Below, one piece after another: positions 1,469-10,817 of a stretch of 10,817 bases of DNA. The notes below the pieces were generated by a model. It made no database searches, was not told where the DNA came from, and was given only the letters and a program-made list of their open reading frames with translations. The DNA lies in contig NZ_ML142850.1 of the NCBI RefSeq assembly GCF_004138495.1, positions 505,159-515,975 on the forward strand, in the 5' to 3' direction. The first letter of the stretch is position 1. Every line of letters starts with the position of its first letter. The DNA comes from Phytoactinopolyspora endophytica (GTDB lineage: Bacteria > Actinomycetota > Actinomycetes > Jiangellales > Jiangellaceae). Made by a program: the position numbers and the translations under genes.

Positions 1469-1603
1469 GCTGCGTATCCCCCTGTTCTCCGCCCTGTACC
1501 GCACCCCCCTTGTTAAAGCTATGCACAGACCAGACATTTGACGCAAGGGGCCAAACGACCCCCTTTGCCGACGATCAAGACCTGACGACCGACCAGTTAC
1601 GTA

Positions 1604-1618
1604 TGATAACGATTATCC
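1604..1618. promoter_or_regulatory. Fur/Zur-type metal-regulator box
   Basis: TGATAACGATTATCC matches the Fur-superfamily 7-1-7 consensus TGATAATNATTATCA at all but two positions and contains a perfect GATAA/TTATC inverted repeat. In actinomycetes this motif is best known for the zinc repressor Zur. A second, similar box lies before the zinc-independent L31 gene at 2500-2514, which favours Zur over Fur. It lies 98 bp before the DUF6506-like start and 136 bp before the divergent membrane-protein start, so it could serve either gene. Confidence 0.6.
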
Positions 1619-1636
1619 ACTGCTCTGATCCGGAGG

Positions 1637-2103: not shown

Positions 2104-2142
2104 CGTCTGCCCTTCGGCGGCCCGGACGCCGAAGGGCAGACG
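2104..2142. terminator. Strong bidirectional intrinsic terminator hairpin
   Basis: Perfect 16-bp arms (2104-2119 and 2127-2142) around a 7-base loop lie between two convergent genes, the DUF6506-like gene (+, ends 2066) and rpmE2 (-, ends 2207). There is no clear T-run, which is common for actinobacterial terminators. The position and perfect pairing support termination in both directions. Confidence 0.85.
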
Positions 2143-4397: not shown

Positions 4398-5660
4398 GTG
4401 AACTCCCGACCGTCCCTGGACACCCGCGGTGCATCCGGTGCTGAGCTGCCCGGCCTGCTGCCTGGACTGCTGCGAACCGATGCGGACATCGACCGCAGCA
4501 CGCGACGCACGCGCCGCACGCTGCGGGACTGGATCATCGACGTCGTCTGCTTCCTGATCGCCATCGGGATCGGCCTGGCGGGATTCGACGCGGCCGCCGT
4601 ACACATGACGAGCGAAACGACTGAGCTTGCCGACCTGGTCGCCGGGGCCGCGGCCTGTATCGCGTTGTGGTGGCGACGGCGCTGGCCGGTCGCGCTCGCT
4701 GTAGCGGTCGCACCCGTCTCGATCGTCGCGTCCTCTGCCGGGGGCGCCTCGATCATCCTGCTGTTCACCGTCGCCGTGCATCGCCGCTTCACGGTCACCA
4801 TGGCCGTCGCCGGCCTGCACATGGTCTGCGGGATGCTCTTCTACGGCATTTACCCCGACCCGGAGCTCTCTCCCAGGATGTCGCTCGCGGTGAGCGCCCT
4901 GGTGGTCGTCGCCGTCACGACGTGGGGGCTGTTCGTCCGAGCCCGCCGTCAGCTGGTCATCTCACTGCGGGAGCGCGCGCGGCAGGCCGAGTCGGAGGCC
5001 TCGCTCCGCGTCGAGCAGGCCCGGCACCTGGAGCGGGAACGCATCGCACGGGAGATGCACGACGTGCTGGCGCACCGGATCTCGCTCCTCAGCGTGCACG
5101 CGGGCGCTCTGGAGTACCGTCCAGGCGCCCCCGAGAAGGAGATCGCCGCCGCGGCGTCGGTGATCCGCTCCAGCGCGCACCAGGCCCTACAGGACCTGCG
5201 AGACATCATCGGCGTTCTTCGGTCGCAGCCCATAGACCAGGCCGACCCGGAAGGGCCGCAGCCGACGCTCGAACAACTCCCGGCGCTGGTCGAGGAGTCG
5301 CAGCAGGCGGGGATGCGGGTCAGCCTCGACGACCATCTCGACGACGGCGCGCAACCGCCGCCGTCCACGGTGGCCCGCTGCGCCTACCGCGTCGTCCAGG
5401 AAGGTCTGACGAACGCACGCAAGCACGCCCATGGTGCCGGGGTCCGGGTGACGCTCGACGGCCGGCCCGACGACGGCCTCCAGGTCGAGGTCCGCAACCG
5501 CATGCCGGTCGGATCGGCGGCCCGGCCGGAGATCCCAGGCGCCGGCACCGGACTGATCGGGCTGCGCGAACGGGTCGGTCTGGCCGGCGGACGACTCGAG
5601 CACGGCACGACACCGGATGGCGACTTTCGCGTGTCCGCTTGGCTACCGTGGCCCTCGTGA
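4398..5660 (+). CDS. NarL-type (HisKA_3) sensor histidine kinase
   Basis: The protein is 420 residues from GTG at 4398. A basic N-terminus leads into about four to five membrane helices (roughly residues 45-185), with almost no extracellular domain, so sensing is probably within the membrane. A coiled linker rich in Arg and Glu follows. The HisKA_3 helix REMHDVLAHRISLL carries the phospho-accepting His221. The ATPase domain has N-box NARKHA (Asn339) and a GAGTG motif (381-385). The protein would pass phosphate to the response regulator that overlaps its 3' end. Start choice is uncertain: a TTG at 4353 adds 15 residues and falls in the inverted repeat. The GTG at 4398 has no good ribosome site but may be leaderless, with TACCGT about nine bases upstream. 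Confidence 0.93.
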   Translation: MNSRPSLDTRGASGAELPGLLPGLLRTDADIDRSTRRTRRTLRDWIIDVVCFLIAIGIGLAGFDAAAVHMTSETTELADLVAGAAACIALWWRRRWPVALAVAVAPVSIVASSAGGASIILLFTVAVHRRFTVTMAVAGLHMVCGMLFYGIYPDPELSPRMSLAVSALVVVAVTTWGLFVRARRQLVISLRERARQAESEASLRVEQARHLERERIAREMHDVLAHRISLLSVHAGALEYRPGAPEKEIAAAASVIRSSAHQALQDLRDIIGVLRSQPIDQADPEGPQPTLEQLPALVEESQQAGMRVSLDDHLDDGAQPPPSTVARCAYRVVQEGLTNARKHAHGAGVRVTLDGRPDDGLQVEVRNRMPVGSAARPEIPGAGTGLIGLRERVGLAGGRLEHGTTPDGDFRVSAWLPWPS

Positions 5661-6410: not shown

Positions 6411-7592
6411 TCAGCTGGCGGCCGCGCTCCCCTCGACGGCGTCCGCGAGCATCGGGACGAGCTCCTCGAGCAGCAACGGCAGGCTCAACACGGTCACGAA
6501 CGACGTGGCCGCACCCAGTGGATCACTGGACTCAAGGAAGACCTCCCGCTGCTCGGTGTGCACCGGCAACGACTCGTACAGCGCACCACCCACGTCCTCC
6601 GCCTCGGCAGCATCCAGCCAGACGATCGCGTCCACGTCGAGCATCTCGACCCGCTCCTCGCTGAGGTTCGCGCCGAACTCGTCGCCGGTCACGTCCGCCA
6701 AGCCGTCCGGCAGCTCGAATCCCAGGGCGGTGAGGAACTGGCCGCGAGGGTCGTCCGGGCCATACACGAAGATGCCCTCGTACGGCGTGGCCATGACGGC
6801 GGTAGCCTCGGCGAACGCCGGATACTCGGCACGCGCGGCATCGAACTGGGCTTCGACGTCGTCGATCAGCGCCTCCGCCTCGTCCGCCATACCGACAGCC
6901 CGGCCCGTCGTGCGGGTGAGCTCCGCCCACCCGATGCCGTAGTCAACCTGGCCCGCCGGATGGCCGACCGTCGGAGCTATCTCCGACAACCTCTCGTACT
7001 CCTCCTCCGTCACGCCGGAGTACAACGCGAGAATCAGGTCCGGATCCTCGGCAGCGATACCCTCGTAGTTGATGTCGGTCGAGTCGCCGACCACGACGGG
7101 GGCCTCCCCTCCGGCCGCTTCCAGCTCGTCGGCCGCCCACGGCCAGATCGCACCCGGCTGCTCGCCGAACCATTCGGTCGTTGCCACGGGCACGATCCCG
7201 AGTGCCAGCAAGGCGTCCTGGTCCATCAGCCCAACGGCCGCGACCCGCTCAGGCCGCTCGGGCACCGTCGTGCTTCCATACGTGTGCTCGATGGTCACCG
7301 GAAACGCCGCATCGCCCGTATCACCGCCCGCGTCACCGCTCGACTCTCCGCCTGCGTCGCCGCCCCCTTCGTCGCCTTCGCCCGTACTCACGTCGTCGGT
7401 CGCGTCGTCGCCCGCATCATCCGAGCCGCAGCCGGCGAGCAGGAGCACGCCACACACCAGAGCCGCAAATGCGGCACGGGCCACAGGGCCATGGCCTGGG
7501 AACCGCAGAGCCACCCCCACGCTCGCACCCGCGCTCGCACCCGCACCTGAGCTCGCGCGGCCCCCACGCTCGTCCATTCGCAGTCTTCTCAC
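6411..7592 (-). CDS. Ferric-siderophore ABC transporter substrate-binding lipoprotein (first)
   Basis: This 393-residue FecB/FhuD-class binding protein has a lipobox (LAGC, Cys55) after the hydrophobic stretch AAFAALVCGVLLLAGC, so it is exported and lipid-anchored. An acidic Asp/Gly/Glu-rich linker (56-96) follows, then VTIEHTYGSTTVPERPERV, the family's usual opening. Later motifs are LILALYSGVTEEEYERLSEIAPTV and a helical hinge region. It would deliver ferric siderophore to a permease not in this window. The GTG at 7592 has GGGAG about eight bases upstream but gives an unusually long 36-residue n-region; a GTG at 7484 would give a normal signal peptide but lacks a clear ribosome site. Two iron boxes upstream imply repression by a DtxR/IdeR/DmdR-type regulator. 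Confidence 0.93.
   Translation of the reverse strand: MRRLRMDERGGRASSGAGASAGASVGVALRFPGHGPVARAAFAALVCGVLLLAGCGSDDAGDDATDDVSTGEGDEGGGDAGGESSGDAGGDTGDAAFPVTIEHTYGSTTVPERPERVAAVGLMDQDALLALGIVPVATTEWFGEQPGAIWPWAADELEAAGGEAPVVVGDSTDINYEGIAAEDPDLILALYSGVTEEEYERLSEIAPTVGHPAGQVDYGIGWAELTRTTGRAVGMADEAEALIDDVEAQFDAARAEYPAFAEATAVMATPYEGIFVYGPDDPRGQFLTALGFELPDGLADVTGDEFGANLSEERVEMLDVDAIVWLDAAEAEDVGGALYESLPVHTEQREVFLESSDPLGAATSFVTVLSLPLLLEELVPMLADAVEGSAAAS
7520..7547. repeat. 12-bp tandem repeat near the start of the first binding protein
   Basis: The 12-base unit CGCTCGCACCCG occurs twice in tandem (7520-7543), with part of a third copy. On the minus strand it encodes the low-complexity Ala/Gly/Ser stretch AGASAGAS between the GTG at 7592 and the signal-peptide core. 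A multiple-of-three unit keeps frame if copy number changes. The same stretch would be untranslated leader if the GTG at 7484 is the real start. Confidence 0.6.
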
Positions 7593-7638
7593 ACCACAAC
7601 TCCCGTCTCGTCGATAGGTGGCACACCATCGGCCAAAG

Positions 7639-7672
7639 TATCATTAGCCTCACCTTACTTAGGCATACCTTA
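7639..7672. promoter_or_regulatory. Two overlapping DtxR/IdeR/DmdR-type iron boxes
   Basis: TTAGCCTCACCTTAC (7644-7658) and TTAGGCATACCTTAC (7659-7673) are adjacent 15-bp direct repeats with 12 identities. Each belongs to a 19-bp window (7639-7657 and 7654-7672) that matches the iron-box consensus TTAGGTTAGGCTAACCTAA or its complement at 13 and 12 positions. They lie 47-80 bases before the first binding-protein gene, as expected for iron-dependent repression. The region is more AT-rich than its surroundings. Confidence 0.7.
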
Positions 7673-7704
7673 CGGGACCCCGAACAGTCCGCATAAACCA
7701 CCGG

Positions 7705-7772
7705 GGTTCGTGGCCTCACGTAACGTTTGGCGGGCCTGGAGATCGTTGTAGCGTTACCTGAGGCCACGAACC
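7705..7772. repeat. 64-bp palindromic intergenic element, copy 1
   Basis: The core element is 7707-7770. Its arms (7707-7725, TTCGTGGCCTCACGTAACG, and 7752-7770) pair with a single mismatch (7719 with 7758), and two further G-C pairs extend it to 7705-7772. The 26-base centre is unlike those of the other two copies. It lies between the iron boxes of the first binding protein and the AbiEi-like gene. Confidence 0.9.
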
Positions 7773-7793
7773 GACCGAGGCCCGGCCTTCAGG
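7757..7793 (+). other. Alternative hairpin sharing the right arm of palindrome copy 1
   Basis: Bases 7757-7765, part of the right arm of the 64-bp palindrome, can also pair with 7784-7793 through nine base pairs with one bulged base (7788). The two foldings exclude each other. In a plus-strand transcript toward the AbiEi-like gene this resembles an attenuator, but nothing else supports that. Confidence 0.4.
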
Positions 7794-7908
7794 TCGCACC
7801 AGAGCCGTCTATCCACAGCTGCCGTCGTCGGACGTATGCGCCCCGGGGTTCTCCACATTCGGCCAGGTGACCTTCCCCGCGTGTCTCTGGTCGCGAACGA
7901 TAGGCGAC

Positions 7909-8917
7909 GTGCCCGAACGCGTGAACCACCTGTCAGGTGACGTGGAAGACCTGCTTCTCATCGGCGACGGTCTACTCACGGTTGCCGGCGCACGCGAGGC
8001 GGGTATCACGCGGCCGCGGCTTCAACGGCTCGTGCAGGCCGGACTTCTGATCCGGCTAGCCAAGGGCATCTATGCCCGCCGTGAGGATTACGAGAACGCG
8101 GAACCGTGGCACGCATTCGCGCTACGCTCACGGGCGTTCACGACGGCGTGCGGCCCGGACGCATACGCAGCCGGCTGGTCGGCCGTGGCAGTTCGCGGCC
8201 TGCCCACCGTCAGCCCACCGCCGGAGAAGCCGATGGTCGTGGTTCCCCTGGAAGCGGGGTGGGCGAAGAACTCCACATTCGGCGAGATCAGAAGGGCGGA
8301 CTTGCCGCCGGAGCAACGTTCCGTCGTCGGCCGCTGTCCGACAGTGACCGACGCCCGGCTGGTCGTTGACATCGCTCGCACCCAGCCCCCGAGAGGACGC
8401 ATTGGTCCTCGCCGACGCTGCACTGGCATCGGGCACCACCGTGGAGAAACTCACCCATGTCCTCGGGATGCAACTCGGCTGGCCAGGAGCATCCGCGGCG
8501 AGATGGGTCGTTGAGCACGCGGACGCCTATGCGGAGTCCCCGCTTGAGGCGTTGGGACGGCTCACGTTCATCGAACACGACCTGCCCGTCCCCGTCTCGA
8601 ACGCCTGGATCGAGCTCGGCCCGGTGCGGCTCCGCCCGGACCACCTCCTCGACGACCGATGGCTGATCTTCGAAGGCGACGGCGACACTAAGTACAACAA
8701 CCGTCTCGACGCCGCGACCGTGATCCGTCATCAGCGTGAGCGGGAATGGCAGCTCCGTGAGCACGGACTCGAGGTTCACCGCTATGGCTGGCCGGACGCT
8801 CGTCACAGCCGTGGGCAACTTGCCGAGCGGTTCCGGGCGGTGATCGCCGCACACCCGCCACGTACCCACCCGTGTCCTTGGTACCGGGAACGCAGGACGT
8901 ACCGGCACGTGGCCTAG
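7909..8917 (+). pseudogene. Frameshifted AbiEi-like / DUF559-domain gene
   Basis: Two overlapping frames make one family-like protein. The first gives a winged-helix domain (LLTVAGAREAGITRPRLQRL to AKGIYAR, about 22-56) and a middle part ending VTDARLVVDIARTQP. The second continues PREDALVLADAALASG and a DUF559 (VSR-like endonuclease fold) end with SPLEALGRLTFIEHDLP and LIFEGDGDTKY. The frames join if one C is removed from CCCCC at 8386-8390, which would give about 335 residues. This actinobacterial family is usually labelled type IV antitoxin AbiEi-like, although no AbiEii toxin gene is adjacent. The start is uncertain; GTG at 7909 has AGG just upstream, and GTG at 7867 is also in frame. It may be a pseudogene, a sequencing error or a phase-variable gene. 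Confidence 0.75.
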
Positions 8918-8947
8918 AAGGCTCGTGGCCCGAAGGACTTCGTGGCC
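8908..8947 (+). repeat. Three spaced CGTGGCC motifs at the end of the AbiEi-like gene
   Basis: CGTGGCC occurs at 8908-8914, 8924-8930 and 8941-8947, 16 and 17 bases apart. The third copy is the left arm of palindrome copy 2. The second (extended to 8931) could pair perfectly with 8993-9000 of its right arm. This looks like repeated or decayed arm sequence beside the element. Confidence 0.55.
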
Positions 8948-9003
8948 TGACGTAACGTGTGAAGCTCTGGCGGATGCGCGCAGCGTTACGACGGGCCACG
9001 AAG
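8938..9003. repeat. 64-bp palindromic intergenic element, copy 2
   Basis: The core element is 8939-9002. Its arms (8939-8957, TTCGTGGCCTGACGTAACG, and 8984-9002) pair with one mismatch (8950 with 8991) and one G-T wobble (8948 with 8993); one more C-G pair extends it. The centre is again 26 bases with unrelated sequence. It lies between the convergent AbiEi-like gene and the second binding-protein gene, where it could serve as a terminator in both directions. Confidence 0.9.
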
Positions 9004-9032
9004 GCGAGCGCACCGGCGCCCCGCGCGGGCAG

Positions 9033-10049
9033 TCATCGCGTGGCGTCGGCGAGCAACGGCACGATGCCGTCGATCGCGTACTGCGTCGCCAGCGTCGTGC
9101 CGATCGCATAGGCAGCCGCCAAGTCGCCGTCGATGACGACAGAGCGTCCATCGGCGACGGCCGGCACGGACTGGAACTGGCGGTCCTCGGTGATGTCGGT
9201 GGTCGGTATGTAGATGGGAAATGCGACGACGACGTCGGCGTCCAACAGGTCAAGCCGTTCCGGAGAGATGTCCACCGAGAAGCCCTCAGGGCCGGGTTCG
9301 AGCTCCTCGATAGTGGGACTCTGCTGGAAGCCGAGCCTCTCCAGGAACACCACCCGCTGAGCGCCCTCGACGTACGCGCCCCAGCCCTCGCTGGTCTTCG
9401 GCGCGGCCACCACGGTCTTGCCCTGCCACTCCGGGTGCTCGGCCGCGGCGGCCTCGAAGGCCGCGTCCACCTCGTCGAGCAAGGCGTCGCCCTGCTCCGC
9501 CAGGCCCAGAGCTGTGGAGATCATCCTCACCTGTTGCTCGGGGCTGGTGAGGTAGCTGTCGCCGCCGTCAGGCACACCGACGGTCGTCGCGATGGACGAA
9601 AGCCGGTCGTAACGCTCCTGGTCACCCGAGCTTTTGACGTCGAGGATGAGATCAGGCTGGAGAGCGGCGACCGCCTCATAGGAGGGCTCGAGCGTCTCGA
9701 TGATCTCCGGAGGCTCGTCGTACAGCCCTTCCGCCCAGGGCCCGACTCCCTCGCCGCCGAACGCAAGCCAGTCTGAGGCGCCGACCGGTTGCACACCCAG
9801 CGCCAGCGCGGTCTCCGCATCGCCCCACCCGAGAGCCACCACACGTTCAGGCTGCTCATCAATGGTGACCTCACCGAACTTGGTCTCGACAACCGCCGGG
9901 AACGTGCCGTCGGGTGCGCGCTCACTGTCATCCGCCGAGCCGTCCGGCGCGCTTCCTCCGCCCTCCGTGGCGGTGTCATCGCTCCCGCAAGCAGCGAGGA
10001 CGAGAGCAGCGGCGCCGGCCGCGATCACCGCGATGCGCGTGAACCTCAT
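9033..10049 (-). CDS. Ferric-siderophore ABC transporter substrate-binding lipoprotein (second)
   Basis: This 338-residue protein has a textbook lipoprotein signal: MRFTRIAVIAAGAAALVLAAC with Cys21 as the lipid-modified residue. An acidic Gly/Asp/Ser linker (22-49) leads to FPAVVETKFGEVTIDEQPERV, typical of FecB/FhuD-class proteins. Later stretches are ALGWGDAETALALGVQPVGA, LQPDLILDVKSS and DLLDADVVVAFP. It should bind a ferric siderophore outside the membrane and work with the FecE-type ATPase encoded just upstream. It differs from the first binding protein in linker and loops, so the two may serve different ligands. ATG at 10049 is preferred, with AGGAAGG about eleven bases before it; the in-frame upstream extension to 10124 runs through palindrome copy 3. 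No iron box is visible between it and the ATPase gene. Confidence 0.95.
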   Translation of the reverse strand: MRFTRIAVIAAGAAALVLAACGSDDTATEGGGSAPDGSADDSERAPDGTFPAVVETKFGEVTIDEQPERVVALGWGDAETALALGVQPVGASDWLAFGGEGVGPWAEGLYDEPPEIIETLEPSYEAVAALQPDLILDVKSSGDQERYDRLSSIATTVGVPDGGDSYLTSPEQQVRMISTALGLAEQGDALLDEVDAAFEAAAAEHPEWQGKTVVAAPKTSEGWGAYVEGAQRVVFLERLGFQQSPTIEELEPGPEGFSVDISPERLDLLDADVVVAFPIYIPTTDITEDRQFQSVPAVADGRSVVIDGDLAAAYAIGTTLATQYAIDGIVPLLADATR

Positions 10050-10074
10050 GCTGTGAAGAACCTTCCTGTCGTGT

Positions 10075-10106
10075 CGAAACCCGCTGCACCCTCGGGCCGG
10101 GTTTCG
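10075..10106 (-). other. Hairpin overlapping palindrome copy 3, in the leader of the second binding protein
   Basis: Perfect 9-bp arms, CGAAACCCG (10075-10083) and CGGGTTTCG (10098-10106), enclose a 14-base loop. The right arm shares bases 10103-10106 with the left arm of palindrome copy 3, so both cannot fully form at once. It lies 26 bases before the gene's start. Attenuation between the ATPase and binding-protein genes, or partial termination that sets their ratio, are possible roles. Confidence 0.55.
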
Positions 10107-10168
10107 TGGGCTCAGGTAACGCACGCGGCTCGGGGAACGCTGCCAGGAGTTACGTCAGCCCACGAAGC
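10101..10168. repeat. 64-bp palindromic intergenic element, copy 3
   Basis: The core element is 10103-10166. Its arms (10103-10121, TTCGTGGGCTCAGGTAACG, and 10148-10166) pair with three mismatches (10113, 10115 and 10121 with their partners); a wobble and a G-C pair extend it to 10101-10168. The centre is 26 bases. Where copies 1 and 2 have C paired with G in the arm, this copy has G (10110) paired with C (10159), a compensatory double change. It lies between the ATPase and second binding-protein genes on the same strand. Confidence 0.88.
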
Positions 10169-10183
10169 CGCCGGTACACCGGC

Positions 10184-10817
10184 TCACGCGTGTCCGGGCC
10201 GCGTGCGGTCACGTCCGAGCGGGGCGACCATGGGCGTCGCGGTGACCGGGTCGGGTACCACCCGGCACTGCAGGCCGAAGACCTCTTCGACGAGGTCGGC
10301 GGTGACGATCTCCCGCGGCGCTCCTTCGGCGACGACGCGCCCGTCCTTCATCGCGATCAGGTGGGTCCCGTAACGGGCCGCGTGGTTCAGGTCATGCAGG
10401 ACCGCCACCAGGGTGTTGCCGTCATGGTGCAGATCGGTGAAGAGCTCCAGCAGCTCGATCTGGTGCGTGATGTCCAGGAACGTCGTCGGCTCGTCGAGCA
10501 GAAGCAGGGGCGTCTGCTGCGCCAGCACCATCGCCACCCAGACCCGCTGACGCTGGCCACCGGAGAGCTCGTCGACGAGCCGCGCCGACAGATCCGAGAC
10601 CCCGGTCGCGGCCATAGCGTCGAGAACGGCCTGCTCGTCGGCGTCGCTCCACTGGCGGATGAGCTTCTGATGCGGGTATCGGCCCCGGGCCACCAGGTCC
10701 GCGACCGAGATCCCGTCCGGCGCGATCGAGCTCTGTGGCAGCAACCCGAGCCGGCGGGCGACCTCTTTGGCCTTGTACGAGGTGATCGACTTCCCGTCGA
10801 GCACCACTGATCCGGCC
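10184..10817 (-). CDS. Ferric-siderophore ABC transporter ATPase, FecE/FepC type (5' end missing)
   Basis: The visible 210 residues are the C-terminal part. The reading frame is open to the right edge (AGSVVLDGKSIT...), so the N-terminus with Walker A lies beyond the window. Present are the Q-loop (GLLPQSS), YPHQ-type helical region, signature LSGGQRQR, Walker B LLLLDEPTTFLD, and H-loop VLHDLNHA, followed by the FecE-like end (HLIAMKDGRVVAEGAPREIVTADLVEEVFGL). It supplies ATP-driven import of ferric siderophore across the cytoplasmic membrane. The second binding protein follows it on the same strand after 134 bases; the permeases may be encoded upstream, outside the window. Confidence 0.95.
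   Translation of the reverse strand, partial: AGSVVLDGKSITSYKAKEVARRLGLLPQSSIAPDGISVADLVARGRYPHQKLIRQWSDADEQAVLDAMAATGVSDLSARLVDELSGGQRQRVWVAMVLAQQTPLLLLDEPTTFLDITHQIELLELFTDLHHDGNTLVAVLHDLNHAARYGTHLIAMKDGRVVAEGAPREIVTADLVEEVFGLQCRVVPDPVTATPMVAPLGRDRTRPGHA

What the first reader, a model, noticed from the sequence alone, without database searches (positions are those of the whole stretch)
7705..10168. Family of three fixed-length 64-bp palindromes with variable 26-bp cores in successive intergenic gaps
Elements at 7707-7770, 8939-9002 and 10103-10166 share 19-bp inverted arms (TTCGTGGSCTSASGTAACG type). Each is exactly 64 bp with a 26-base centre, yet the centres are unrelated. They occur about 1.2 kb apart in three consecutive gaps of the siderophore locus. 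Fixed length with conserved ends and a free centre could mean a non-autonomous mobile element (REPIN- or MITE-like), a paired protein-binding site, or a structured terminator or leader. I do not recognise it as a named family.
Basis: partly seen in the sequence, partly recalled or inferred. Interest (0 to 1): 0.78.

Follow-up and report, generated by a model that had tools for sequence, protein, structure and literature searches.

The report
Palindromes paired with an AbiEi-nuclease gene
The three 64-base palindromes belong to a family scattered through this bacterium and its relatives, and genes for an unstudied, probably DNA-cutting protein are often flanked by matching palindromes, which suggests an unrecognised kind of mobile DNA that works like, but is unrelated to, the known REP/RAYT repeats.

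Summary
The 64-bp palindromes form a genome-wide family: 31 places in this Phytoactinopolyspora genome, about 34 in each of two congeners. Length is nearly fixed (21 of 25 exactly 64), arms covary, the inner 18 bases are almost free. Between elements 1 and 2 lies a frameshifted gene for an AbiEi-type DNA-binding protein fused to a Vsr/EDxHD homing-endonuclease-like domain (fold of an intact relative). Relatives of this gene, in Jiangellaceae and another family of the class, are often flanked on both sides by matching palindromes whose arms are specific to the gene lineage. Solo copies and one whole unit are present in one species and absent at the matching place in another. A hipA gene with a palindrome on each side sits at different places in a collinear region of two species. 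No Y1/RAYT transposase was found. Best reading: a REP-like mobile system built on an AbiEi-nuclease instead of a HUH transposase. The association is well supported; movement and mechanism are inferred. Solo copies favour gene 3' ends, so effects on transcript ends remain possible.

The parts
7707..7770 (.). Palindromic element 1 (64 bp); left border of the AbiEi-nuclease unit
7867..8917 (+). Gene for an AbiEi-type (winged helix + AbiEi domain) protein fused to a Vsr/EDxHD-like nuclease domain; broken into two frames (N-terminal piece 7867-8514, C-terminal piece 8366-8917; the frame changes near 8385-8387)
   Evidence: AbiEi_4 hit on the N-terminal piece, none on the C-terminal piece; the two pieces match an intact relative at 64% and 73% identity in adjacent frames; fold taken from an intact relative
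8939..9002 (.). Palindromic element 2; right border of the AbiEi-nuclease unit, 21 bp past its stop
9033..10049 (-). Second periplasmic binding-protein gene (Peripla_BP_2), lying between elements 2 and 3; absent from the matching locus of P. halotolerans (possible passenger)
10103..10166 (.). Palindromic element 3 (solo copy, or right border of a passenger segment)

Best explanation
The palindromes are the DNA part of a REP-like mobile system. The autonomous unit is palindrome - gene - palindrome, where the gene encodes an AbiEi-type DNA-binding protein fused to a Vsr/EDxHD-type nuclease; solo palindromes are its non-autonomous copies or leftovers. SHOWN by comparison: a dispersed family, cognate pairs around many of the genes, arms that differ between gene lineages, both borders changing together, solo copies and one whole unit present in one species and absent in another, and a palindrome-flanked hipA at different places in two species. 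INFERRED: a dimer of the AbiEi half grips the two arms, which would explain fixed length and free centre; the nuclease half nicks or cuts at or near a palindrome; repair against another copy then spreads palindromes, inserts or inverts the gene between two palindromes, and carries passenger genes. The gene copy in the window is frameshifted and probably inactive, so movement here would depend on an unbroken copy elsewhere in the genome, of which at least three are present (C5:375936, C5:396570, C3:437122).
Against: No binding or cutting has been tested. No target-site duplication or clean junction was found; flanks are too diverged. Presence/absence could be loss rather than gain, and the hipA pattern could come from duplication and differential loss. 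15 of 36 AbiEi-type genes did not reach the flank threshold; a strict palindrome near the gene was found in 24 of 42 named loci against 13 of 94 controls; of 25 units with a detected palindrome 12 have one on each side, 2 of these unmatched. Protein and arm similarity correlate only weakly (rho 0.23; 2 of 2000 permutations). G004 has matches of the palindrome model without a close relative of the gene, and G006 the reverse. The nuclease motif seems to have Lys where EDxHD enzymes have His (motif recalled; alignment). The P. halotolerans AbiEi-type copy beside hipA carries an in-frame stop, as the window copy is broken.
Confidence: 0.66

Rival explanations
1. The palindromes are fixed operator sites: the AbiEi-type protein represses its own gene and a scattered regulon, and nothing moves.
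For: AbiEi of Streptococcus agalactiae autoregulates through a similar inverted repeat (PMC3985639, passages); arms are specific to each gene lineage; 7 of 44 solo copies lie between divergent genes.
Against: Many units have copies on both sides of the gene. 28 of 44 solo copies lie within 60 bp of a gene 3' end against 26% of random intergenic positions, and 10 of 44 near a 5' end against 36%; convergent gaps are enriched (16 of 44 against 15%). Solo copies, one unit and a palindrome-flanked hipA differ in place between species.
Confidence: 0.15
2. Ordinary MITEs or REPINs moved by an unrelated transposase; the AbiEi-type genes merely sit beside them.
For: Multi-copy, short, inverted-repeat, intergenic.
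Against: No Y1_Tnp in the genome. Different AbiEi lineages have different arms, matched left and right, in two families. Centres are nearly random although length is fixed, whereas MITE interiors are usually shared (recalled). Other transposase families were not searched for matching ends.
Confidence: 0.08
3. Transcription terminators or 3' end stabilisers shared by descent.
For: Strong hairpins and placement just past stop codons and in convergent gaps.
Against: No terminator-like site was found in 7560-10250, but that scan allows loops of 3-8 only and needs a T run, so it could not see these hairpins as such. Conserved arm sequence, fixed length, pairing with one gene family, and 7 of 44 solo copies between divergent genes stay unexplained.
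Confidence: 0.06
4. Recombination sites for cassettes (integron-like), with an integrase elsewhere.
For: Genes between two elements (hipA, second binding protein, AbiEi-type gene) vary between species, and an Rpn-type nuclease gene is also bracketed.
Against: The sites track the AbiEi-type gene. No integrase was looked for, and attC core sites were compared from memory only.
Confidence: 0.05

Closest known systems
REPtron: REP/REPIN repeats with TnpA-REP (RAYT)
   Same: Dispersed intergenic palindromes; cognate copies around a nuclease gene; solo copies outnumber genes; lineage-specific sequence.
   Different: Protein is AbiEi plus Vsr/EDxHD-like, not a HUH/Y1 enzyme (no Y1_Tnp in the genome); elements are about 57-80 bp with free centres, against REPs of tens of bases with a GTAG motif (PMC8266576, passages). 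A GTAG-like tag was not looked for here.
AbiE type IV toxin-antitoxin system (AbiEi)
   Same: Winged helix and AbiEi domain; the known AbiEi site is an inverted repeat of 11-bp arms with N27 (PMC3985639, passages).
   Different: Extra C-terminal nuclease domain; neighbours of the window copy are binding-protein genes, not a toxin; sites often on both sides of the gene and dispersed.
EDxHD homing endonucleases (I-Bth0305I) and Vsr
   Different: DNA-binding half is AbiEi-like; gene lies between two complete palindromes in intergenic DNA; Lys seems to stand in place of the recalled His.
DUF559 / MTES_1575 restriction-endonuclease-like proteins
   Same: Three more distant members (L149, L107, L144) match these Pfam models, all below the curated cut-offs; L147 matches MTES_1575 only marginally.
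   Different: The 14 papers listed for DUF559 show no palindrome link in title or abstract start (listing only).

Membership tests
REP/REPIN-RAYT | A Y1 (HUH) REP-associated transposase in the genome | tested here: not met
   PF01797: 0 matches at E 0.001 in the own genome (94% complete); positive in 5 of 14 control genomes
REP/REPIN-RAYT | Dispersed intergenic palindromes, many copies | tested here: met
   31 places; 0 of 57 lie wholly inside a predicted gene
REP/REPIN-RAYT | GTAG-type tag beside the palindrome | not tested
   no call looked for it
AbiE type IV toxin-antitoxin | AbiEi antitoxin fold | tested here: met
AbiE type IV toxin-antitoxin | Adjacent AbiEii nucleotidyltransferase toxin gene | tested here: not met
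   window copy only: both neighbours are Peripla_BP_2 proteins; neighbours of other units were not annotated
EDxHD homing endonuclease | Catalytic fold of I-Bth0305I/Vsr | tested here: met
EDxHD homing endonuclease | EDxHD catalytic residues | tested here: inconclusive
   E212 and D243 invariant, E254, D256 and K260 in at least 90% of 29; assignment to the motif is mine and the motif is recalled
EDxHD homing endonuclease | Cuts an allele lacking the gene and is copied into it | not testable with these tools
   needs biochemistry or crosses
MITE | Ends shared with an autonomous transposon | not tested
   only Y1_Tnp was searched
MITE | Target-site duplication | tested here: inconclusive
   orthologous sites without the element are too diverged

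The most novel reading that the evidence does not exclude
A new class of mobile element, widespread in Actinomycetes: an AbiEi-type DNA-binding domain fused to a homing-endonuclease-like nuclease, bounded by cognate palindromes that serve as landing pads. A cut at a solo palindrome is repaired from a unit, turning one palindrome into palindrome-gene-palindrome; the reverse event leaves a solo scar; a gene caught between two pads (hipA, a binding protein, perhaps an Rpn nuclease) travels as a passenger.
Probability: 0.4. Interest if true: 0.92.

Novelty: new variant of a known kind. Interest (0 to 1): 0.8.

Why it matters
REP-like palindromes are known to be tied to one enzyme family (RAYT). 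A second, unrelated protein family with its own lineage-specific palindromes would show that the repeat-plus-nuclease arrangement arose more than once, would give a testable role to lone AbiEi/DUF559-type genes of Actinomycetes, and would explain a class of intergenic palindromes and local gene shuffling. It makes a clear prediction: protein and palindrome form a specific binding and cutting pair.

Tried and rejected
Rfam at gathering thresholds: no hit in the window. Y1/RAYT mobiliser: not found. The arm pattern in viral contigs: no match. Terminator-like and sigma-70-like sites in 7560-10250: none, with a scan that cannot see 26-base loops. Sequence search of solved structures gave two weak AbiEi/AbiGI-type hits for the protein profile and none for the N-terminal piece of the window gene. 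NCBIfam gave no family for the clade of the window gene. Target-site duplications: sought by eye, none clear. In one search I compared L043 and L050 with the wrong P. halotolerans loci; redid them. L043 is left out of the four places judged, because its two flanks are about 600 bp apart in P. halotolerans. A first count of 24 of 39 against 1 of 133 counted two genes twice; it is replaced by 22 of 37 against 1 of 133. A test that protein and arm similarity track each other gave only a weak correlation. I read the variable centre as a free spacer; 20 centres of 26 nt share 34% against 30% for shuffled letters over the inner 18 bases, so a faint common signal remains. The class of the 178-bp insert in L044 was not pursued. 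Foldseek alone ranked I-Bth0305I at E 0.24, so the nuclease match rests on the second look. Literature: 9 counted searches of CC0/CC BY/CC BY-SA PubMed Central (titles and abstract starts of the listed papers seen) listed nothing describing these palindromes or their link to AbiEi/DUF559-type genes; most subscription papers and preprints are not held, so this is not proof of novelty.

Full report
OBSERVATION. The window holds three 64-bp imperfect palindromes at 7707-7770, 8939-9002 and 10103-10166. The window lies at G000:C2:505159-515975 of a 7.6-Mb genome.

A GENOME-WIDE FAMILY. In 20 stretches fetched around arm matches, a scan found 25 palindromes: 21 of exactly 64 bp, three of 65 and one of 66. 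A covariance model built from 24 of them gives 61 strand-wise matches in the own genome, 31 distinct places, and 68 and 67 strand-wise matches in G001 and G002, hence about 34 places each; 14 of 40 genomes, the own one included, have at least one match, the weakest (G034) at E 4.8e-4. The tool scored only part of its first-look candidates, so the counts may be low. One weak place, C25:19282, belongs to another arm family. Arm columns average 88% and 86% identity, the loop 47%. Pairing is under constraint: 15 of 27 pairs carry changes on both sides, and the covariation score is 0.223 against 0.121 for shuffles (0 of 500 reach it) and at most 0.104 for slid partners; the rows are paralogous copies, so relatedness inflates such scores. 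One copy of 240 bp (L044) is a 64-bp element interrupted by a 178-bp segment with 20-bp terminal inverted repeats beginning TA; leaving it out, with one TA kept, gives exactly 64 bp.

PLACEMENT. Of 57 elements matched in 40 fetched stretches, none lies wholly inside a predicted gene (genes from my own simple caller, which misses some). After dropping 12 that border AbiEi-type genes and one weak match, 44 solo copies remained: 28 lie within 60 bp of a gene 3' end (random intergenic positions 26%), 10 near a 5' end (random 36%), 16 between convergent genes (random 15%) and 7 between divergent genes (random 32%) (binomial p 2e-7 and 4e-4 for the first and third). The model and the fetched set were both seeded from strong arm matches.

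COGNATE PALINDROME PAIRS. Scanning the flanks of 44 loci with AbiEi-type genes showed pairs whose arms agree left and right but differ between genes, though some genes had a palindrome on one side only or none. A test that needs no palindrome detection compared 300 bp left with 300 bp right of each gene: 21 of 36 AbiEi-type genes score 40 or more (one further locus was too short), against 4 of 136 control genes. Three of those four controls are AbiEi/DUF559-type genes (two of them also sit in the AbiEi set, and L107 matches only below the curated cut-offs); the fourth is an Rpn-type nuclease gene bracketed by this palindrome family. Without double counting: 22 of 37 against 1 of 133 (Fisher 8e-17). 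A stricter palindrome criterion finds at least one in 24 of 42 named loci against 13 of 94 controls, and both sides in 6 of 42 against 1 of 94. In another family of the class, 16 of 61 genomes have a relative of one such gene at E 1e-20; 22 of the 30 loci fetched reach a flank score of 40, against 0 of 33 neighbouring genes in the same loci and 10 of 870 swapped left/right flanks. Two genomes there carry dispersed 57-bp versions with 18-bp arms and a 21-nt centre, 10 copies listed, 4 of them bordering a unit. The threshold of 40 was chosen after seeing the first data.

SPECIFICITY AND CONCERTED CHANGE. Of 26 units examined, 25 have a detected palindrome and 12 have one on each side; in these 12 left-right similarity has median 96.5, between units 15 (95th percentile 25), and the unit's own partner is best in 10 of 12. 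Protein identity and arm similarity correlate weakly over 25 units (rho 0.23; 2 of 2000 permutations). Among 14 genomes G000-G013, palindrome-model matches occur in 8 of 9 with a gene at least 50% identical and in 1 of 5 without (my classification; Fisher 0.023).

MOBILITY BY COMPARISON. (a) Solo copies: of four places that could be judged in P. halotolerans, three lack the element (L036 at 5070 and 12635, L050) and one has it (L053); the covariance model agrees. (b) Whole unit: the L162 unit lies in a stretch of about 2 kb, with some 700 bp of other sequence, that is absent in P. alkaliphila, where the two flanks are 19 bp apart; P. halotolerans has the unit. (c) Passenger: genes X-P-Q-R-S-T-U-V are collinear between this genome and P. 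halotolerans; a hipA gene (HipA_C; 77% identical) with a palindrome on each side lies between S and T here and between X and the AbiEi-type gene there, where the S-T gap holds two other predicted genes and no match of the palindrome model. Its borders are 98.4% and 95.3% identical within species, 58-66% across. The AbiEi-type gene lies between X and P in both, in opposite orientation; the P. halotolerans copy has an in-frame stop. (d) Window locus: P. halotolerans keeps the first binding-protein gene and the ATPase gene, but has only a remnant of about 95 bp of the AbiEi-type gene, a decayed palindrome (31 bits), and no second binding-protein gene.

MECHANISM (inferred). Two established facts fit. 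AbiEi binds an inverted repeat with 11-bp arms and N27, extendable to 23-bp arms (PMC3985639, passages). I-Bth0305I dimerises on a target of nearly 60 bp (PMC3943268, passages). A dimer gripping both arms would fix the length and leave the centre free. A nuclease cut repaired from another copy would homogenise neighbouring palindromes, insert or invert the gene, and carry genes lying between two palindromes. None of these steps has been tested.

COMPARISON WITH KNOWN SYSTEMS. The arrangement works like a REPtron (PMC8266576, passages), but the genome has no Y1 transposase match, so it is not filed as one. It is not filed as an AbiE toxin-antitoxin system: the antitoxin fold is present, the window copy has no toxin neighbour, and the nuclease domain is extra. 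It has a homing-endonuclease-like fold, but homing was not tested.

LIMITS. One genome per species; no strain series. Gene predictions are mine. The genome is 94% complete. Several thresholds were chosen after looking at the data. Novelty rests on nine counted literature searches in an open-licence library.

Noticed in passing
L044 (G000:C9:33200-43500), 5019-5258: A 64-bp palindrome interrupted by a 178-bp segment with 20-bp perfect terminal inverted repeats starting TA; looks like a second miniature element with a TA duplication (class recalled, not tested).
   Followed up: partly
L096 (G001:C1:1290000-1309900), 6519-7922: An Rpn/YhgA-type nuclease gene is bracketed by two similar palindromes of this family; G001:C1:1296519-1341999 holds 10 copies in about 45 kb.
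   Followed up: partly
window 2104-2142: A 19-bp inverted repeat (95% complementary) with 1 base between the arms; looks like an ordinary hairpin, unrelated to the finding.
   Followed up: no
window 7640-7676: A/T-rich, partly palindromic stretch upstream of the first binding-protein gene, resembling an iron-regulator (DtxR/IdeR) box; recalled, not tested.
   Followed up: no
window 1600-1622 and 2495-2516: Similar TGATAA-rich stretches upstream of a small gene and of a ribosomal protein L31-like gene, resembling zinc-regulator boxes; recalled, not tested.
   Followed up: no
window 8904-8946: Three CGTGGCC repeats in about 40 bp reaching into element 2, as if partial arm copies.
   Followed up: no
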